IMG/VR virus record: IMGVR_UViG_3300030450_001075 | Location: 1 to 33,932 of that record | Reading direction: 5' to 3' (one strand) | Source: a virus | Length of the DNA stretch: 33,932 nt | Part shown: positions 9,900 through 31,734 of the stretch, in pieces | Numbering within the stretch: position 1 is the stretch's first letter | Layout of the letters: every line of letters starts with the position of its first letter | Translations under genes and position numbers: made by a program | The notes under the pieces: model-generated | The model's database searches: none | What the model was told of the DNA's origin: nothing | Seen by the model: only the letters and a program-made list of their open reading frames with translations

Positions 9900-10175
9900 T
9901 TATTTGTCTTTTTTAAGTTCCGGGTATTTTCTATACACACAAGATTTAATACCTTCTGGGTCTGGTGCATTATGAGCTAATTTAATAGCAGATTTAGCTC
10001 TTTCTACTGTATTGACTGGATAAGTTCCCTCTGCAGCTCCACCGGCTGGACCACAAAATGATTTAACATCTGGATATTTACCAGCATTAGAACTACCAGG
10101 TTTTTCTCTAATTTCTTCTAATTTTTTTCCTTTTGGTAATCTTGAAAATGGATTACCACCTTGATTATATCCCAT
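9900..10175 (-). CDS. small protein with YPV-type C-terminal domain
   Basis: A 91-aa product. The N-terminus MGYNQGGNPFSRLPKGKK matches the start of the 169-aa protein at 12342-12851 (MGYNQSNNPFSRKASPLNQ) but breaks off before the S-P-L-N part. Residues 50-88 (TYPVNTVERAKSAIKLAHNA and then Y..YPEL) resemble the short helical YPxxTxxRAxxAL...KYP domain seen in many phage and bacterial small proteins, often beside capsid or protease genes (DUF6582-like by eye). Function unknown. Confidence 0.6.
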   Translation of the reverse strand: MGYNQGGNPFSRLPKGKKLEEIREKPGSSNAGKYPDVKSFCGPAGGAAEGTYPVNTVERAKSAIKLAHNAPDPEGIKSCVYRKYPELKKDK

Positions 10176-10186
10176 AATTTTATTTT

Positions 10187-10513
10187 TTATAACGCTTCAA
10201 ATGGATCAGTACGATCATACGCTTCTTTTTCCCAAGGCAAATCTGGATGTCCTTCATCCATTTCACCTCTTTTATAACACTTACCTTTCCAATAAACACA
10301 TTCGTCATCATAATCTAAATCACCGCGTTTTATTTGTTCTATATGAACTTTCTCGTGATCTACAATGCTTTGTTCATCATCTGGATGTAATTCATCTGAT
10401 ACTAGAATAGTACCGTTTTTATTACCCTTACCAAGCGCACCATCTTCAATTGGAGCCCTATAAACAGGTGTCCAATCTAAATCAAATGGAGCTGGTCTCA
10501 TTTTAAAAGCCAT
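10187..10513 (-). CDS. small zincin-like protein (HExxH)
   Basis: A 108-aa product with DHEKVHIEQIKRGDLDYD at about residues 52-69, in which HEKVH fits the HExxH zinc-binding helix of metallopeptidases, and a downstream Glu-rich WEKEAYDR (about 94-101) that could supply the third ligand Glu as in gluzincin/DUF4157-like minimal domains. If active it would be a very small metallopeptidase acting in the virion or during assembly. It could also be an inactive structural domain. The start codon overlaps the stop of the 50-aa gene by one base. Confidence 0.55.
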   Translation of the reverse strand: MAFKMRPAPFDLDWTPVYRAPIEDGALGKGNKNGTILVSDELHPDDEQSIVDHEKVHIEQIKRGDLDYDDECVYWKGKCYKRGEMDEGHPDLPWEKEAYDRTDPFEAL

Positions 10514-10665
10514 TACTTAAAAGGAAAATATTTGTTTAATAATGTTTTTCTCTTTCCACAACCACAATCAGTACCAACAGCGGTAGAAATAGTATCTACC
10601 GCTTTCTTGATACCTGTTGCTTTTGTGAAAGACTCTACTGCATCACCTAAGCCAGTTGCTTTCAT
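10513..10665 (-). CDS. 50-aa Cys-containing small protein
   Basis: This gene starts MKATGLGDAVESFTKATGIK and ends CGCGKRKTLLNKYFPFK. It fills exactly the space between two neighbours: the upstream stop is the adjacent base, and its own stop shares one base with the next ATG. Small proteins with the pattern FTKATGI...D-C-G-C-x-x-R-K-x-x-L-N are, from memory, common in marine phage structural blocks, which supports a real gene. The paired Cys could bind metal or form a disulfide. Function unknown. Confidence 0.75.
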   Translation of the reverse strand: MKATGLGDAVESFTKATGIKKAVDTISTAVGTDCGCGKRKTLLNKYFPFK

Positions 10666-14618: not shown

Positions 14619-14875
14619 AAAACAACGACGACGTCTTGCGCCTTTATAACATGATATATTTTTTCATCTATTTCAATCTGATGACCAGCATGTCTATCGT
14701 AAAATATCTTATCATTTTTTGTTAAACCTGGTACTTCTTCTCCAACAGATACTATATCGGCTTCTATATATCTAATATCATTTCTATCATGTTTAGATAA
14801 ATATAAACCACCTTCTGTTTGAGTAGTTATTTCTTCTGCTTTTTGTATAATTAAATTTCTACCTACTGCTTTCAT
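14615..14875 (-). CDS. groES: co-chaperonin GroES
   Basis: The 86-aa product follows GroES throughout: an N-terminal strand, a mobile loop with the hydrophobic motif GGLYL (22-26, replacing the bacterial GGIVL), a central GD-type turn (NDKIFYDRHAG), and a C-terminal IYHVIKAQDVVVVL. It is slightly shorter than bacterial GroES (about 97 aa). It caps the GroEL cage during folding. The gene overlaps the end of groEL by 17 bases, so the order is groEL then groES, the reverse of the usual bacterial operon. Confidence 0.88.
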   Translation of the reverse strand: MKAVGRNLIIQKAEEITTQTEGGLYLSKHDRNDIRYIEADIVSVGEEVPGLTKNDKIFYDRHAGHQIEIDEKIYHVIKAQDVVVVL

Positions 14876-16406
14876 CGATCCTCACATTATTGATTACACA
14901 ATCAGTTGATAAAATAGTAGCTGCTACAGAAGCTGCGTTAGTTAAAGCACTTTTAGTTACTAATAATGGATCAATAATACCATGCTCTATCATATTTACC
15001 ATATTTCCCGTAACCACATCAATACCCACGCCTTGTTCTGCGGCTATTGTTATTTTGTCTAATCCAGCATTATCTAATATTGATCTATAAGGAGTAATTA
15101 TTGCTCTACTTAAAATTTCCTCTCCTCTATTATCTTCATCTACATTCATCGCGGCATTAAGTAATGCAACACCACCTCCAGAAACTATACCTTCTTTAAT
15201 CGCAGCTTTTGTAGCACATATAGCATCTTCAATTCTATCTTGTTTTTCTTTTAATTCAACATCTGAATTAGCTCCTACTTTAACAACCGCTACTTTAGCA
15301 CTTAATCTAGCTAATCTTTGTTCTAACCCTATTACTTCATGTGGTTTTAATTTTTTAGTTAAATCTTTTTTGATTTTACTTATAATTTTTTCCACTTCAG
15401 GATTTGCTCCTTCTATTTGTAATATTGTTTGATCGTTATTTGTAGTTGCTTTTAAACATGTACCTAAATAATCTAGTTGTATAGTGTTTAAATCATCACC
15501 TAAATCCTCATTGACTATTTGGGCATTTGTTAATAATGCTAAATCTTCTAATATTTCTTTACGTCTTAAACCAAATACTGGTGGTTCTAAAACGTTTACT
15601 TTAATATTTCCTTTAATTTTATTCATTACTAAAGCAGATAGAACTTGAGGTTCTAATTCTCCTATAATTAACAAAGGTTGTTTGTTTTTAATAACATGTT
15701 CTAAAGTAGATTGTATCTGTCTTACAGAATCTATTTTAGAATCAATTATTAATACTAAAGGATTTTCTAGTTCACAAATGTTTTTCTCTTTGTCTGTTAT
15801 TAGATTTGGATTTAATATTCCTTTATTATACTCTACACCTTCTACTATCTCTACTTCTGTTTCTCCAAGACTTGAAGGTTCCATTATAACCACACCTGTT
15901 TCTCCTACCTCTCTAAATGCATCTCCTATTAAACTACCTAGTTCTGCATCATTATTAGTAGATATAGTAGCTATTTGATCAATCATATTTCCAGATACAG
16001 GTACAGCTACTTGTTCTAAGTATTTTATTATTTTTTTAACTCCAGATAAAATCCCTTCTTTTATTTCTCTTGTATTTGTTTTATCTAGAACTTTATAAGC
16101 TTCTTCCAATATAGCATGTGCTAATACTGTGGCAGTGGTGGTACCATCACCAGCTTCTCTTACTGTTTTACGTGCTGCTTCTTTTAAAAGAGTTGCACCC
16201 ATGTTTTCTACAGGATCTAAAAGTATAATTGAATCTGCAACAGTTACTCCATCTTTTGTTATAATTGGATTTCCCTGTCCATCTTCTAGTATAACACACT
16301 TGCCGCTAGCCCCTAATGTGGAGCTAACAGCTTTAGTGAGTTTTTCTATACCTTTAAATACCTTGTTTTTAGCATCACTGCCAAAATTAAGATTTTTTAC
16401 AATCAT
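14859..16406 (-). CDS. groEL: chaperonin GroEL
   Basis: The 515-aa product is a full-length group I chaperonin subunit: TKDGVTVADSI (about 50-60) with the ATP-site Asp, AGDGTTTATVLA (about 85-96), the apical domain in the middle, and RIEDAICATKAA followed by GIVSGGGVALLNAAM (about 380-410) with the ATPase Asp. The C-terminus ends NVRIDESSR, without the Gly-Gly-Met tail of bacterial GroEL and about 30 residues shorter overall. Phage-encoded chaperonins (for example in Pseudomonas phage EL) fold phage proteins, often capsid proteins. Transcription probably starts at the candidate late promoter at 16774-16813, through the 97-aa gene. Confidence 0.95.
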   Translation of the reverse strand: MIVKNLNFGSDAKNKVFKGIEKLTKAVSSTLGASGKCVILEDGQGNPIITKDGVTVADSIILLDPVENMGATLLKEAARKTVREAGDGTTTATVLAHAILEEAYKVLDKTNTREIKEGILSGVKKIIKYLEQVAVPVSGNMIDQIATISTNNDAELGSLIGDAFREVGETGVVIMEPSSLGETEVEIVEGVEYNKGILNPNLITDKEKNICELENPLVLIIDSKIDSVRQIQSTLEHVIKNKQPLLIIGELEPQVLSALVMNKIKGNIKVNVLEPPVFGLRRKEILEDLALLTNAQIVNEDLGDDLNTIQLDYLGTCLKATTNNDQTILQIEGANPEVEKIISKIKKDLTKKLKPHEVIGLEQRLARLSAKVAVVKVGANSDVELKEKQDRIEDAICATKAAIKEGIVSGGGVALLNAAMNVDEDNRGEEILSRAIITPYRSILDNAGLDKITIAAEQGVGIDVVTGNMVNMIEHGIIDPLLVTKSALTNAASVAATILSTDCVINNVRIDESSR

Positions 16407-24127: not shown

Positions 24128-24358
24128 ATGACTCAATTAAATTTAAAAAGATTTGTGATAAGAAAATCATTAATCGGTAAGAACACAACTATAAATGTTG
24201 AATTCAAAAATGGTAAAAAAGTAACTTATAATCATGATGAAGTATATGAAATTATGAAAGATAAGTTAAACACTCTACCTTGTTTTGTAAAGTATAATTC
24301 TTATACTTCTTCAACTAATGTACCAGTTGTAGTAAGAGATGTTGTCGAAGTACAGTAA
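24128..24358 (+). CDS. unrecognised early protein
   Basis: A 76-aa product starting MTQLNLKRFVIRKSLIGKNT, basic, with a likely beta-hairpin (NVEFKNGKKVTYNHDEVYE). It is the first gene after promoter copy 2 and is followed by a tRNA-like element. No domain recognised. Confidence 0.6.
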   Translation: MTQLNLKRFVIRKSLIGKNTTINVEFKNGKKVTYNHDEVYEIMKDKLNTLPCFVKYNSYTSSTNVPVVVRDVVEVQ

Positions 24359-24373
24359 ACAACACTCTTAAAT

Positions 24374-24416
24374 TAATATTTTGGAACCAGGAAGAGTTCG
24401 ATTCTCTTCATATTAA
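24374..24416 (+). ncRNA. mini tRNA-like element 1 (acceptor + T arm)
   Basis: An acceptor-like 5' strand TAATATT (24374-24380) pairs with CATATTA (24409-24415), six Watson-Crick pairs with a mismatch at the inner end. A T arm AAGAG-TTCGATT-CTCTT (24392-24408) has the conserved TTCGATT loop. Only 11 bases lie where the D and anticodon arms belong. The discriminator A and the trailer CTAAC follow. Acceptor stem plus T arm is the minimal RNase P substrate shape. The next start codon is 20 bases downstream. A decayed tRNA is the alternative. Confidence 0.5.
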
Positions 24417-24436
24417 CTAACTCTAAATAAATAATT

Positions 24437-26014: not shown

Positions 26015-26086
26015 GTTAATTAGAATTGCTATCACTCACGGAAATTCACTGACAATCATATAACTTATAGGTCTATATAGACAACA

Positions 26087-26133
26087 GAGCATACTACGGT
26101 ACTAAGGCGCGGGTTCGACTCCCGCTATGCTCT
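26087..26133 (+). ncRNA. mini tRNA-like element 2 (acceptor + T arm)
   Basis: GAGCATA (26087-26093) pairs with TATGCTC (26126-26132), extended by an eighth A-T pair (26086/26133); the T arm is GCGGG-TTCGACT-CCCGC (26109-26125). Only 15 bases connect the acceptor strand to the T arm, so there is no room for D or anticodon arms. The discriminator T is followed by CTAAA. The 71 bases upstream (26015-26085) have no gene and contain short complementary segments (GTCTATATAGAC), so a longer RNA is possible. The next start codon is 15 bases away. Every base pair here is clear; the function is not. Confidence 0.55.
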
Positions 26134-26148
26134 CTAAATTAATAAATT

Positions 26149-26542: not shown

Positions 26543-26845
26543 ATGGATTCAAGAAAAAAATATGACCAAATGGTGGAAGACGGAGAAATAAAACCTACAA
26601 TAGCTAAATACATATGGGTATTAGATTTTGGAGATGGTAAGATATATAGATATAAGATTAGTGGGAATCACTTTGAAACATACCCTCATGATTGGAATCC
26701 TGACCATGAAGCGTGTGAAGAGTTCTTAACTGAATCAGGACATAACTTAAAAAATTGTGAATGGATGGTAACATCAGAAGATAAACCTATTAATAATAAT
26801 TTAATAAATTATAAATCGAATTATAATACGAATAAAGACAGATAA
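26543..26845 (+). CDS. unrecognised early protein
   Basis: A 100-aa product starting MDSRKKYDQMVEDGEIKPTI. Its C-terminus NYKSNYNTNKDR is encoded by promoter copy 4, whose sequence lies inside the gene; the NYNTN string recurs at the end of the protein at 29490-29687 for the same reason. No domain recognised. Confidence 0.6.
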   Translation: MDSRKKYDQMVEDGEIKPTIAKYIWVLDFGDGKIYRYKISGNHFETYPHDWNPDHEACEEFLTESGHNLKNCEWMVTSEDKPINNNLINYKSNYNTNKDR

Positions 26846-26850
26846 TAAAA
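26817..26850 (+). promoter_or_regulatory. early promoter motif copy 4
   Basis: CGAATTATAATAC at 26817-26829 and AGATAATAAAA at 26840-26850, start-to-start 23 bases. The first block lies in the last codons of the upstream gene and the promoter feeds the gene starting at 26859. Confidence 0.65.
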
Positions 26851-27543: not shown

Positions 27544-27781
27544 ACTACCTAAATGGTTTAAAGGAACTATCTATGAAATAGGAGATATTGTAACAAATCC
27601 ATTTAGTGGAGAAAGATATGAATTAAATGCAGAAGAACTATCTATGTATGATTTAATAATGGGTATTACTATTATGGGTGATATAAAAGGGTGGAATGAT
27701 GAGTATATTGATTTACATCAAAAAGGATTAAGTTGGTTTAGAGAACATAACTCTAAAGCATATATGGTATTATTAGATTAA
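27509..27781 (+). CDS. unrecognised protein overlapping its neighbour
   Basis: A 90-aa product; starts at 27509 (MKDMSGKQTKNKLPKWFKGT) or at the internal Met at 27518. It overlaps the previous gene by 35 or 26 bases. The C-terminal half is helical (MYDLIMGITIMGD). Its stop is the last base before the structured RNA region. Confidence 0.55.
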   Translation: MKDMSGKQTKNKLPKWFKGTIYEIGDIVTNPFSGERYELNAEELSMYDLIMGITIMGDIKGWNDEYIDLHQKGLSWFREHNSKAYMVLLD

Positions 27782-27911
27782 TACCACCACCGGAGGCACA
27801 CCGCTATCTGACGAACTTGAAATAGAGTGACCGGACGATATGAGTGACCCGAGGTTGGTAGGTTGTGGTTGAATCAGTAAACGTTTTCACGAGCTGATTA
27901 CTACAACCGAT

Positions 27912-28023
27912 AACTAGGTTTGGATATTGGAGAAGGCATAAGACTCGGCGGGAGTATTCCTCAGAGCGCTGATTATCCCAATAACTACTGACGAGTAAAG
28001 AGGTTCGATTCCTCTTCTAGTTA
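27912..28023 (+). ncRNA. D-armless tRNA-like element 3 (112 nt)
   Basis: A 7-bp acceptor AACTAGG (27912-27918)/TCTAGTT (28016-28022) with one G-T wobble; T arm AGAGG-TTCGATT-CCTCT (27999-28015); discriminator A and trailer CTAAA. In place of the anticodon stem a helix TATTGG/CCAATA (27925-27930/27978-27983) encloses 47 bases. A small hairpin TACT-GACG-AGTA (27986-27997) precedes the T arm. No D arm is visible. An alternative 5' strand at 27983-27988 would give a mini form. Layout matches element 4. Confidence 0.45.
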
Positions 28024-28030
28024 CTAAATA

Positions 28031-28153
28031 GAGACAGTGGCATACAGGTCACGTTAGGCGATTACCGGGGCATTAGAATCGATCGGGGTGCGTCAAAACA
28101 GAAAACGGTATAAATGATAATTCTAGAAACTACCTGTTCCGAAACACTGTCTC
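28031..28153 (+). ncRNA. nested-stem RNA domain
   Basis: A perfect 9-bp stem GAGACAGTG (28031-28039)/CACTGTCTC (28145-28153) encloses ACAGGT (28044-28049)/ACCTGT (28132-28137) and TAGAAT (28074-28079)/ATTCTA (28120-28125). Three stems in strict nesting over 120 bases form one of the clearest structured parts of the region. It starts right after the trailer of tRNA-like element 3. Confidence 0.6.
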
Positions 28154-28179
28154 ATATGGGCGTGATAAGGTATTGACCG

Positions 28180-28288
28180 AGACGTGGTAACAGTAAGTGT
28201 ATGTGTGTCCTTTTTAGGCATTACGGAAGTGTATTACACTGAATCCAACCGAGTCATGGTAACGCAGGTTCGAATCCTGCCACGTCCA
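28180..28288 (+). ncRNA. D-armless tRNA-like element 4 (109 nt)
   Basis: Acceptor 5' strand AGACGTG (28180-28186) pairs with CACGTCC (28281-28287) through six pairs, the outermost being A-C. T arm GCAGG-TTCGAAT-CCTGC (28264-28280). A helix AGTGTA/TACACT (28196-28201/28235-28240) encloses 33 bases. A small hairpin ACC-GAGTCAT-GGT (28248-28260) sits before the T arm. No D arm. Discriminator A, trailer CTAAA. Same architecture as element 3. Confidence 0.45.
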
Positions 28289-28795
28289 CTAAACTAGGTA
28301 GTAAGAATAACAGTATTGAAATGAACTGGTGAGGGATCGTTATGAACTCAGGAATTTTCAATGAAGCAATCTTACACCTTACCGATTACCTAACAGATAA
28401 GTCGACGTCTTGGCTTCCTTGAGGTATCAATTGTACAAAGCCAGTCGCAGTGACAGTAGTCGGTAAAATATATAGGTGTGGGCACGCGTGCGGTGCCGTT
28501 ACTCGACCTGAGACAAGACGTACGAGCACACCTAAAATATAAGAGGCATTGATGCACCTACATGGTTCAAAGCAGATGTAAGTCCTCATGGGTTAAAACA
28601 CGAAGGACGGAATAGTGTAGTAGTTACTAAACGGATACGCGGAAAACTACAAATTTCTCAACCTGGTAAATATGAGTCAGGTTAATGAGTTAGACACTAG
28701 ACCCCAATTGTGACTTTGCGTTCTGAGCTTAGGCAAGATGTTCACTTAGTACAATTATGAAAGCGTGGATACGTGCACAGTATCACCCAAAATAT

Positions 28796-28869
28796 TGCGG
28801 GATAGAGCAGTTGGTCAGCTCGCGAGCCTCATAAGCTCGAGGTCGTAGGTTCGAATCCTACTCCCGCGT
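28796..28869 (+). tRNA. tRNA-Met (CAU)
   Basis: A canonical cloverleaf: acceptor TGCGGGA/TCCCGCG (first pair T-G), D stem GAGC/GCTC with loop AGTTGGTCA, anticodon stem CGAGC/GCTCG with loop CTCATAA (anticodon CAT), variable loop AGGTC, T arm GTAGG-TTCGAAT-CCTAC, discriminator T. The anticodon stem lacks three consecutive G-C pairs, so it is elongator-like, not initiator. No CCA is encoded; the trailer is CTAAA as in the four tRNA-like elements. Confidence 0.93.
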
Positions 28870-28883
28870 CTAAATTAAATAAA

Positions 28884-28979
28884 ATGAGTGTAGAATTAGA
28901 AGCAGTCTTTGTTTTAGGTATGTTTGCTATGTTTTGTATAGCGATCATTATTATCTTTAACGATGGCTTAGAAAAATAA
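28884..28979 (+). CDS. 31-aa membrane peptide
   Basis: Starts MSVELEAVFVLGMFAMFCIA and continues IIIIFNDGLEK, one membrane segment. It begins 15 bases after the tRNA with an A/T-rich leader, and four bases before the next gene. Small single-pass peptides are common in phages; no family recognised. Confidence 0.5.
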   Translation: MSVELEAVFVLGMFAMFCIAIIIIFNDGLEK

Positions 28980-28983
28980 AATT

Positions 28984-29427
28984 ATGGGAACAAGAAGTTT
29001 AACAAGAGTTATACCTAGACAAGAAGGTATAGCATATAACAAAGGACATGAACATTATGAAGATGCGTGGGTAACTATATATCGTCACTATGATGGTTAT
29101 CCTGATGGACATGGATTAGAATTAGCACATTACTTAAAAGATTTTAAAATTATAAATGGATTAGGTGGACTACCTAAAATGGGTATTCATGCTAATGGTA
29201 CAGGATGTCTAGCTGCACAACTAGTAGGACATTTTAAAGATAATGTGGGAGATATATATTTACGTCCTCATGAAGGAGGAGGAGGAGATGAAGATTATAT
29301 TTATACTATATTTCCTAAAGAAGGAAAACCTGTATATATAGCTATTTATAAGGTATATACTAAGAAGTGTATATTTGTAGGGACACCACAGGAACTCATA
29401 GATAAATATACTCCCAAAGAATCATAG
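28984..29427 (+). CDS. conserved phage protein MGTRSLTR family
   Basis: A 147-aa product starting MGTRSLTRVIPRQEGIAYNK, with IYRHYDGYPDGHGLELAHYL at about 32-51. The pattern MGTRSLT...Y-R-x-x-D-G-Y-P-x-G-H-G is known from many phages and some bacteria as a protein of unknown function. Conserved Tyr/Asp/His residues suggest a small enzyme or binding fold, but the role is not established. Ends YTPKES. Confidence 0.8.
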   Translation: MGTRSLTRVIPRQEGIAYNKGHEHYEDAWVTIYRHYDGYPDGHGLELAHYLKDFKIINGLGGLPKMGIHANGTGCLAAQLVGHFKDNVGDIYLRPHEGGGGDEDYIYTIFPKEGKPVYIAIYKVYTKKCIFVGTPQELIDKYTPKES

Positions 29428-30885: not shown

Positions 30886-30992
30886 CACAAAGAAAATTAT
30901 ATAATCATTTAATGTATACTGATTTCATGGGTATACGAACTAAAATAAAAGAGTTTAAAAAACAAAAAAAGAGAAGAAATGAAAAAATATAG
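30882..30992 (+). CDS. unrecognised 36-aa basic protein
   Basis: Starts MTQRKLYNHLMYTDFMGIRT and ends in a strongly basic tail (KKQKKRRNEKI). It overlaps the sigma-like gene by 14 bases. Possibly a nucleic-acid-binding peptide; no domain recognised. Confidence 0.5.
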   Translation: MTQRKLYNHLMYTDFMGIRTKIKEFKKQKKRRNEKI

Positions 30993-31734
30993 TGTATTAA
31001 ACTATATCAGGTATAAAGAAGATTTAAAAGAATCTTTAAAGAATTTACCTGATCATGGAACTGATTATCATAAATATACTAGAGATGAACTTATAGTTAA
31101 GTTTTCTCCTTTAGTAGAAACTATGGGTCGTAAGTTTTCAACTAGCGATCAAGCATCAGGTATTTTAACTATAATGGATTTGTTACAAGAAGGAGGAGCT
31201 GGTTTAACTAGAGCAGTAGATAAACTAGATTGGGAAACTCTTAATAAATCAGAGGATAAAGAAAAAACATTAAAATCATTCTTTAGTAAAAGAATTAAAG
31301 GAGCAATTAGAAGAAAGATTGATGCATTAAGAGGTAATATAAGAATACCTGAGCATAAATTAAATGAAATAAGAAACACTAAAGATAAAAAAATGGTTTC
31401 AATGTTTTTTAACTCTATATTCTTAAGCATAGATGCTCAATTTAATGACGACAATATGTTTAATGAGATACCAGATAAATCTGAGCCATATAATATTCAT
31501 CTTATGAACGCGTATTTAAAAAGTTTAATGCTTAAGCATTTAGATACTAATGAATATGAAGTATTAAGATTAAGTTATGGATTAGATTGTGATAAGCATT
31601 CTGCTAAAGAAATTGCAGCCGCATTAAAGATTGATGGAGTAGGTAGTTACGTTAGAGTTTCAGAGCTAAAAAGACAAGCTGTACAGAAACTTATAAATAA
31701 TGTAGACCACTCCCAAGTGCTTGATTATCTTTAG
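30979..31734 (+). CDS. sigma-70-family factor
   Basis: The 251-aa product shows sigma region 2 at about 36-120 (DELIVKFSPLV, then DLLQEGGAGLTRAVDKLDWE at 67-86, and FFSKRIKGAIRRKID) and region 4 at about 188-238 (LDTNEYEVLRLSYGLD, HSAKEIAAALKID, VRVSELKRQAVQKL) with a helix-turn-helix for the -35 element. The region 3-4 linker is short. It lies in the early block, before the recombination genes. Inferred role: redirecting host RNA polymerase to phage promoters, most simply the late motif. The alternative is a virulence-type middle sigma. Confidence 0.78.
   Translation: MKKYSVLNYIRYKEDLKESLKNLPDHGTDYHKYTRDELIVKFSPLVETMGRKFSTSDQASGILTIMDLLQEGGAGLTRAVDKLDWETLNKSEDKEKTLKSFFSKRIKGAIRRKIDALRGNIRIPEHKLNEIRNTKDKKMVSMFFNSIFLSIDAQFNDDNMFNEIPDKSEPYNIHLMNAYLKSLMLKHLDTNEYEVLRLSYGLDCDKHSAKEIAAALKIDGVGSYVRVSELKRQAVQKLINNVDHSQVLDYL

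What the first reader, a model, noticed from the sequence alone, without database searches (positions are those of the whole stretch)
27782..28795. A ~1-kb structured RNA domain next to tRNA-Met, possibly a GOLLD/ROOL-like giant phage RNA
The region has no convincing gene in an otherwise tightly packed genome, is richer in GC than its flanks, and contains many perfect complementary pairs in nested order (e.g. 28031-28039/28145-28153, 28379-28389/28456-28466, 28473-28480/28527-28534, 28613-28618/28694-28699). This density of nested stems is hard to get by chance. Phage giant RNAs such as GOLLD and ROOL often lie beside tRNAs. Observation: stems; known: those RNA families; inference: this region is one or is a new class.
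Basis: partly seen in the sequence, partly recalled or inferred. Interest (0 to 1): 0.85.

Follow-up and report, generated by a model that had tools for sequence, protein, structure and literature searches.

The report
Phage tRNA-like RNAs carrying swappable hairpins
This 1-kb stretch of a Flavobacterium-type phage genome is a row of small tRNA-like and hairpin RNAs whose anticodon arms are replaced by hairpins swapped between related phages, a combinatorial RNA kit of unknown purpose.

Summary
The gap is real, but no evidence makes it one giant RNA, and it is not GOLLD or ROOL. It is a one-strand array of separable structured RNAs ending at tRNA-Met. Two are tRNA-like scaffolds without an anticodon: TLD-A (27911-28026) with a variable-arm hairpin, and TLD-B (28158-28291), a tmRNA tRNA-like domain with no tag frame and a G3.U70 pair. 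Hairpins replace the anticodon arm. Virus contigs hold relatives (28, 73 and 86 matches for patterns of a hairpin cap, TLD-A and a third scaffold E) with other hairpins: 51 of 182 distinct inserts share a hairpin with another scaffold type, 0 with shuffled inserts. Arm-closing helices covary in register (z 10.9 for B, 13.2 for E). Elements lie on one strand in 66 of 66 loci with two or more. Carriers form one phage clade (terminase relative in 49 of 50), distantly related to Elemovirus. Most likely the transcript is cut like pre-tRNA into RNAs that display swappable ligand-like hairpins; partners unknown. tmRNA mimicry is the main rival.

The parts
27782..27860 (+). 5' structured element (closed by UACCA/UGGUA)
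   Evidence: fold together with the cap2 hairpin z -3.58; a relative in one locus only, L190, 73%
27861..27908 (+). hairpin with 'cap2' GUAAACGUUUUCACGAGC, here on a plain stem
   Evidence: cap2 in 14 distinct flank contexts; flanks pair in register 0, 4.43/6 vs 3.11 shuffled, z 5.9; in relatives it sits on TLD-A arms
27911..28026 (+). TLD-A: tRNA-like scaffold without anticodon (AACUAG/CUAGUU acceptor, GUUUGG D-loop remnant, variable-arm hairpin UACU-GACG-AGUA, T arm, 3' CUA)
   Evidence: 52 distinct elements: variable arm z 7.5, T stem z 8.9; alignment A2; own fold z -0.05
27938..27967 (+). 30-nt module in the loop of the TLD-A arm
   Evidence: L167 has the same arm with GUAA in place of this module; 29 nt of it recur at 93% inside element C of L002 and L033
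28030..28154 (+). element C (stem 28031-28039/28145-28153)
   Evidence: L032 carries C positions 8-118 at 98% with closing stem GAGGUGGUG/CACCACCUC instead of GAGACAGUG/CACUGUCUC; part of C recurs on TLD-A arms of L015 and L159; hits in 7 loci
28158..28291 (+). TLD-B: tmRNA-like tRNA-like domain, no tag frame, acceptor GGGCGUG/CACGUCC with G3.U70, A73, then CUA
   Evidence: Rfam tmRNA 34.6 bits, gathering 47; pair counts on 25 relatives; my model R1 takes only the 3' part, 28225-28291, 43.1 bits
28196..28240 (+). payload hairpin of TLD-B (AGUGUAUG...UUACGGAAGUGUAUUACACU)
   Evidence: L065, L112, L144 carry the same sub-scaffold with other payloads, L038 with almost none, L032 with the same one; a similar UACGGAAGUGUAUUACA hairpin in scaffold E inserts, likeness to the window read by eye
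28296..28378 (+). hairpin bearing 'cap1' GGUGAGGGAUCGUUAUGAACUC (28328-28349)
   Evidence: cap1 in 28 viral stretches, 12 distinct flank contexts, z 4.5; on TLD-B in L006 and L014, TLD-A in L020, scaffold E in L004
28379..28466 (+). element D
   Evidence: hits in 13 loci; on a TLD-B arm in L177
28472..28535 (+). element F
   Evidence: BLAST hit in one locus: 94% in L095, where it lies after I instead of before G
28543..28588 (+). element G
   Evidence: BLAST hit in one locus: 98% in L032; own fold z -0.32
28590..28705 (+). element H
   Evidence: 99% in L032, 88% in L095, 21-nt fragment in L132; own fold z -0.49
28706..28790 (+). element I
   Evidence: 100% in L032, parts in L095, L057, L132; own fold z +0.80
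28796..28870 (+). ordinary tRNA-Met (CAU) closing the array, followed by CTA
   Evidence: ARAGORN; Rfam 64.8 bits
26087..26136 (+). outlying tRNA minihelix (acceptor + T arm, 15-nt linker, 3' UCUA) between genes
   Evidence: R1 27.3 bits; 6 distinct minihelices in the loci, 0 in mononucleotide-shuffled loci
24373..24419 (+). candidate second minihelix (UUAAUAU/AUAUUAA, 6-bp T stem, 3' CUA)
   Evidence: inside the R1 match 24330-24419, 18.6 bits, E 0.006; pairing read by eye; not found by the stricter minihelix search

Best explanation
Shown by sequence comparison: the region is an array of separable structured RNAs in one phage clade. Two are tRNA-like scaffolds that keep the acceptor stem, T arm and a GG D-loop remnant but have a variable hairpin where the anticodon arm would be, and some of the hairpins are shared among scaffolds A, B and E and plain stems. 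Inferred: the array is transcribed with its neighbours, the tRNA-like ends are cut by host RNase P and 3' tRNA-processing enzymes as for pre-tRNA and tmRNA, and the products are stable small RNAs that display the hairpins, a natural counterpart of the laboratory 'tRNA scaffold'. Inferred with less certainty: the hairpins are ligand-like RNAs (decoys or inhibitors) for host or rival factors, exchanged by recombination in an arms race. My confidence: array of covarying modular RNAs about 0.9; processed display scaffolds about 0.55; host-directed ligands about 0.35.
For: Covariation in register: cap2 stems z 5.9; TLD-B arm helix z 9.7 on 45 of 62 distinct inserts, next best register z 3.3, and z 10.9 on 56 of 74, those not ending in AAC left out; scaffold E insert helix z 10.5 on 37 and 13.2 on 55 of 56, 38 fully paired; TLD-B covariation score 0.479 vs 0.132 shuffled and 0.068-0.153 slid. 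Payload exchange: 51 of 182 distinct inserts share a payload with another scaffold type, 0 with shuffled inserts. Clean swaps: L167 vs window loop; one TLD-B sub-scaffold with different payloads; the core of C kept while its closing stem changes on both sides. Between window and L032 four of five shared RNA stretches are 95.8-99.3% identical (the fifth 89.6% over 48 nt) while the longest shared gene stretch is 78.8% over 4.3 kb. One strand in 66 of 66 multi-element loci; 0.6% of element bases in ORFs of 100 aa or more vs 56.5% of all bases. The engineered tRNA scaffold puts a desired RNA in place of the anticodon stem-loop (PMC3753655, passages).
Against: No transcript, processing or binding data. 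Sharing across scaffolds is mainly B with E (25 and 24 inserts); only 2 of 52 TLD-A inserts take part. A fixed-register closing helix for TLD-A arms is weak (best z 4.1). In one search two of five measures do not exceed shuffles: pairs with a change on both sides (9 vs 8.7, 360 of 500) and pair types (22 vs 26.9, 499 of 500). TLD-A, G, H and I do not fold better than shuffles; F and G have one BLAST relative each, H three, I four. Not every carrier has a strong TLD-B: 36 of 57 loci have a match over 50 bits, and the full contigs of L020 and L167 have none. Against L002 the shared RNA stretches (79.6-100%) are not clearly better kept than genes. Scaffolds keep a common order E-A-B-Met with few exceptions, so arrangement is not free. 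Named relatives (MW202828, Elemovirus elemoA, Calle_1, phi13:2, phi18:3) show only weak TLD-B matches (19.6-25.9 bits) or none. No cellular target of two payload motifs was found.
Confidence: 0.45

Rival explanations
1. tmRNA/tRNA-Ala mimicry is the point. TLD-B is charged with alanine, binds EF-Tu and perhaps SmpB, and either blocks trans-translation or frees stalled ribosomes without a tag; the arm is only a stable filler.
For: Elements of 66-82 nt match Rfam tmRNA above threshold in L007 (66.1 bits), L046 (65), L086 (64.9), L045 (63.4), L096 (54.3), L094 (53.1). With pair 3-70 left free, 44 of 46 distinct elements have G3.U70, 2 A-U, none G-C, while pair 4-69 varies C-G 28, A-U 11, G-C 6, G-U 1. 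In tmRNA the third acceptor pair is completely conserved as G-U and is an AlaRS determinant (PMC3985003, passages).
Against: Does not explain TLD-A, scaffold E, minihelices or the shared payloads. The 3' end is ACUA, not ACCA, so charging would need 3' processing and CCA addition. The window's own TLD-B and 8 of the 14 short tmRNA matches are below the Rfam threshold. Some loci had been fetched with a pattern that fixes U70.
Confidence: 0.22
2. tRNA punctuation: the tRNA-like elements are mainly cutting signals that separate messages and RNAs of a long phage transcript.
For: Acceptor plus T-arm minihelices, one of them between genes at 26087-26136; 3' ends followed by CAA, CTA or rarely CGA in TLD-A and by CTA in the others; tmRNA is processed by RNase P (PMC3985003, passages).
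Against: Cutting signals alone do not need long, conserved, exchanged arm hairpins; elements C, D and F-I are not tRNA-like.
Confidence: 0.15
3. One giant self-assembling RNA, like GOLLD or ROOL, with the elements as domains.
For: Dense array beside tRNA-Met; GOLLD and ROOL often lie near tRNA islands and GOLLD env-38 lay downstream of a Met-tRNA (PMC12286853, passages).
Against: No Rfam match; composition and order differ between relatives; whole-region fold z -0.09.
Confidence: 0.07
4. Decayed tRNA genes and recombination debris without function.
For: Mosaic make-up; no anticodons in the TLDs.
Against: Stems are kept by paired changes over many contigs with terminases 66-90% identical to the window's; decay would not keep pairing.
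Confidence: 0.04

Closest known systems
tmRNA (SsrA, RF00023), its tRNA-like domain
   Same: TLD-B: acceptor with G3.U70, A73, T arm, D-loop without D stem
   Different: 62-142 nt in all; no tag reading frame or pseudoknots; in the window an exchangeable hairpin stands in for about 300 model positions
GOLLD and ROOL giant phage RNAs
   Same: structured non-coding RNA next to a tRNA gene in a phage
   Different: no model match; separable pieces in varying combinations rather than one conserved architecture
Engineered 'tRNA scaffold' (PMC3753655, passages read)
   Same: RNA of choice inserted in place of the anticodon stem-loop
   Different: natural, several scaffold types, no D stem seen in types A and B
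Bacterial Y RNA YrlA with tRNA-like module (recalled, not tested)
   Same: non-decoding tRNA-like RNA
   Different: no array or payload exchange recalled

Membership tests
GOLLD / ROOL | match to the Rfam covariance model | tested here: not met
   no match at gathering on the window or at E up to 5 on 27700-28900
GOLLD / ROOL | one conserved architecture of several hundred nt | tested here: not met
   elements separable and differently combined in relatives
tmRNA | tRNA-like domain with G3.U70 and no anticodon | tested here: met
   28158-28291; 44 of 46 distinct relatives G.U, 2 A-U
tmRNA | tag-peptide reading frame and pseudoknots | tested here: not met
   about 300 model positions replaced by 61 nt; ARAGORN calls no tmRNA in the window or in the 30 loci scanned
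tmRNA | Rfam gathering score | tested here: not met
   window 34.6 against 47 bits; met by six short elements of other loci, missed by eight
tRNA | cloverleaf with D stem, anticodon arm and anticodon | tested here: not met
   ARAGORN finds only tRNA-Met in the window; the TLD-A arm is 16-68 nt of varied sequence
RNase P / tRNA 3'-processing substrate | cleavage at the acceptor ends | not testable with these tools
   needs an assay or transcript ends
Alanine-accepting RNA | charged by AlaRS | not testable with these tools
   G3.U70 present, but ACUA 3' end

The most novel reading that the evidence does not exclude
Phages of this clade carry a natural combinatorial RNA display system. A shared pool of aptamer-like hairpins is recombined onto a few processed scaffolds (tmRNA-like, tRNA-like, and scaffold E), giving each phage its own set of RNA effectors against host or rival factors.
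Probability: 0.35. Interest if true: 0.95.

Novelty: categorically new. Interest (0 to 1): 0.85.

Why it matters
It would be a natural use of tRNA scaffolds to present exchangeable RNAs, evolving by shuffling of modules rather than by point change alone, and a large unexamined set of phage RNA effectors in an environmental phage clade. It also shows tmRNA tRNA-like domains living without their message part, a few of them beside GOLLD, which gives a handle on what the giant phage RNAs do. Each hairpin is a ready bait for pull-down of its partner.

Tried and rejected
Folding of the whole region, stem counts and a repeat search gave no support. Rfam GOLLD/ROOL rejected. BLAST of 27600-28980 against known phages matched 444 records; the 20 listed match at the tRNA-Met end, H1 also with a second piece. 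Without tRNA-Met and most of the TLD-B 3' end, 34 and 4 records matched, none better than E 0.5. In elemoA the gap 10175-10649 and in MW202828 the gap 50117-50708 were read and held none of these modules by eye; a further MW202828 gap at 36014-36457 was not read (script 34 failed). A cellular origin of the hairpins was sought: cap1 0 matches; TACGGAAGTGTATTACA 21 matches in 257 Gb, where I estimate about 30 by chance, and none of those 21 loci has a TLD-B match up to E 1. Five of 64 TLD-A matches were dropped in parsing and duplicates collapsed to 52, one of which (L081) was parsed with an empty arm. First counts of the TLD-B acceptor were off by one and the letter index for position 70 was wrong; one search is the corrected count, on 128 loci that hold A, E or cap1. 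Its output label 'found without the TLD-B pattern' is too strong, since some of these loci were fetched with that pattern.

Literature: searches listed no paper whose title or abstract start describes such arrays. Several listings were capped (20 of 25, 20 of 1,318, 20 of 35, 20 of 41, 9 of 10, 6 of 7 and 12 of 217 shown). PMC9004378, PMC12286853, PMC8776804, PMC11590407, PMC3753655 and PMC3985003 were seen in passages only. The library lacks most subscription papers.

Full report
What the region is. Between the gene ending at 27781 and the gene starting at 28984 there is no ORF of 70 aa or more and GC is 0.436 against 0.280 and 0.292 in the flanks. ARAGORN and Rfam see only tRNA-Met at 28796-28870. 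A permissive Rfam scan of the region shows no GOLLD or ROOL, but a tmRNA match at 28158-28291 (34.6 bits, gathering 47, E 5.7e-12), in which 300 unshown model positions stand against 61 nt.

Three of four quoted stems are perfect. Perfect stems of 8 bp or more number 3 against 1.47 expected (86 of 500 shuffles reach 3), and the whole fold is no better than shuffles (z -0.09). Six single pieces have z between -1.86 and -3.58, four do not stand out. So the original argument does not hold; the structure is shown by comparison instead.

Relatives. The neighbouring gene 28984-29427 led to L002, where the same pieces occur in another order and nesting. The motif GTGAGGGATCGTTATGAACTC matched 28 viral stretches (L005 and L009 are two ends of one contig) and, with one position free, nothing in the bacterial and archaeal genome collection. 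The window's terminase has a relative in 49 of 50 carrier contigs tested, best matches 66-90% identical, a few of them partial; the one without is a 6-kb fragment. Named relatives are MW202828 (62.6%), Elemovirus of Flavobacterium (43%) and Cellulophaga phages phi13:2, phi18:3, phi19:3 and Calle_1 (36-38%). TLD-B model matches there are weak in MW202828, elemoA and Calle_1 (19.6-25.9 bits) and absent in phi13:2 and phi18:3; phi19:3 was not tested. In the same of 13 IMG/VR contigs had a match over 50 bits and L020 and L167 none; among 57 loci 36 had one over 50 bits.

Scaffolds. TLD-A: AACUAG/CUAGUU acceptor (partly fixed by the search pattern; AACUAA/UUAGUU in L032), GUAUGG (27 of 52) or GUCAGG (15 of 52), an arm of 16-68 nt, a hairpin UACY-GACG-RGUA (52 of 52 paired, z 7.5), a T arm (51 of 52 paired, z 8.9), then CAA (33), CTA (17) or CGA (2). 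TLD-B: GGGNRUG/CAYNUCC in nearly all, a GG-bearing D loop, an arm, a T arm and ACUA. On 25 sequences 91.5% of cells pair, against 72.1% in shuffles; covariation 0.479 against 0.132, and 0.068-0.153 when slid; two measures, pairs with double changes (9 vs 8.7) and pair types (22 vs 26.9), do not exceed shuffles, and the arm helix is 71.2% paired because a second subfamily is out of register. Its arm-closing helix pairs in one register: 4.18 of 6 against 2.37, z 9.7, 45 of 62 inserts; 4.09 against 2.33, z 10.9, 56 of 74. With pair 3-70 left free, 44 of 46 distinct elements are G.U and 2 A-U. An earlier count, with U70 imposed by the pattern and some starts misassigned, gave 69 of 75 G.U. Scaffold E (GACGAGTARSTTAATTAG ... 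CATAASTGAAT): insert helix 4.27 of 5 against 2.55, z 10.5, 37 inserts; 4.38 against 2.55, z 13.2, 55 of 56 inserts. tRNA minihelices: 6 distinct, none in mononucleotide-shuffled loci, one at window 26087-26132 before its UCUA tail.

Exchange of payloads. Of 182 distinct inserts in the final set (74 B, 56 E, 52 A) 51 share a payload with another scaffold type (25 B, 24 E, 2 A); shuffled inserts give 0. An earlier, looser count that also admits plain contexts gave 55 of 114, but some 'free' contexts there were unrecognised TLDs. Cap1 sits on TLD-B in L006 and L014, TLD-A in L020, E in L004 and a plain hairpin in the window. Element D sits on a TLD-B arm in L177. The window's TLD-A differs from L167's by a 30-nt module in place of a GUAA loop. 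The window's TLD-B sub-scaffold carries other payloads in L065, L112 and L144, almost none in L038, and the same one in L032. Element C of L032 keeps its core (98% over positions 8-118) with a closing stem changed on both sides. Window and L032 share one 4.3-kb gene stretch at 78.8% and shorter ones at 67-100%; their five shared RNA stretches are 99.3, 98.5, 95.8, 96.7 and 89.6% identical; against L002 RNA stretches are 79.6-100% and the two long gene stretches 77 and 84%. All elements lie on one strand in 66 of 66 loci with two or more; the common order is E-A-B-Met, with exceptions such as BA in 2 loci and BEA in 1; 0.6% of element bases lie in ORFs of 100 aa or more against 56.5% of all bases.

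How it may work. Shown: modular, covarying, separable RNA elements on one strand. Inferred: processing as for tRNA and tmRNA, stable display of the hairpins, and host-directed binding. tmRNA is processed by RNase P, charged with alanine, binds EF-Tu, and has a completely conserved third acceptor pair G-U (PMC3985003, passages); TLD-B keeps that pair. Laboratories replace the anticodon stem-loop of a tRNA by an RNA of choice (PMC3753655, passages); these phages appear to do the same. What the hairpins bind is unknown.

Limits. No expression data; U70 was imposed in part of the sampling; F and G rest on one BLAST relative each, H on three and I on four loci; R-scape was not available; the host is inferred from terminase relatives only.

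Noticed in passing
L077:8895-9431, L109:2970-3506, L056:845-1882, L129:656-1660: In four contigs an ~80-nt tmRNA-like domain without message part lies beside a GOLLD match: 14 nt after it in L077 and L109 (near-identical domain sequence), about 540-555 nt upstream of the Rfam GOLLD part in L056 and L129. GOLLD scores are 142.7, 142.7, 168.4 and 171.8 bits, gathering 150. No GOLLD was seen in the stretches held of L045, L046, L096, L117, L141. Kinship of these contigs was not tested.
   Followed up: partly
window 26828-26846 and, by eye, upstream of genes in relatives: Promoter-like ACGAAT...GATAAT before genes; one exact match to the pattern in the window, expected 0.06, 6 of 100 shuffles have one. 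The phage has a sigma-factor-like protein at 30979-31734.
   Followed up: no
window 26015-26068: Sequence resembling scaffold E (GTTAATTAG ... CATATAACTT) just before the minihelix at 26087, read by eye.
   Followed up: no
L011, about 533-596 and 1220-1283: A ~64-nt element (GGAGTGTCCGGCTTAAATGC...CACTCC) occurs twice in one array, nearly identical, read by eye.
   Followed up: no
contigs of L016 and L018 (G012, G013): The terminase match holds in-frame stops (4 TAA in G012; 2 TGA, 2 TAG, 3 TAA in G013), so these two contigs may have assembly or sequencing errors.
   Followed up: no
window 14859-16406, minus strand: Phage GroEL-like chaperonin, PHROG 5725, E 3.1e-138.
   Followed up: no
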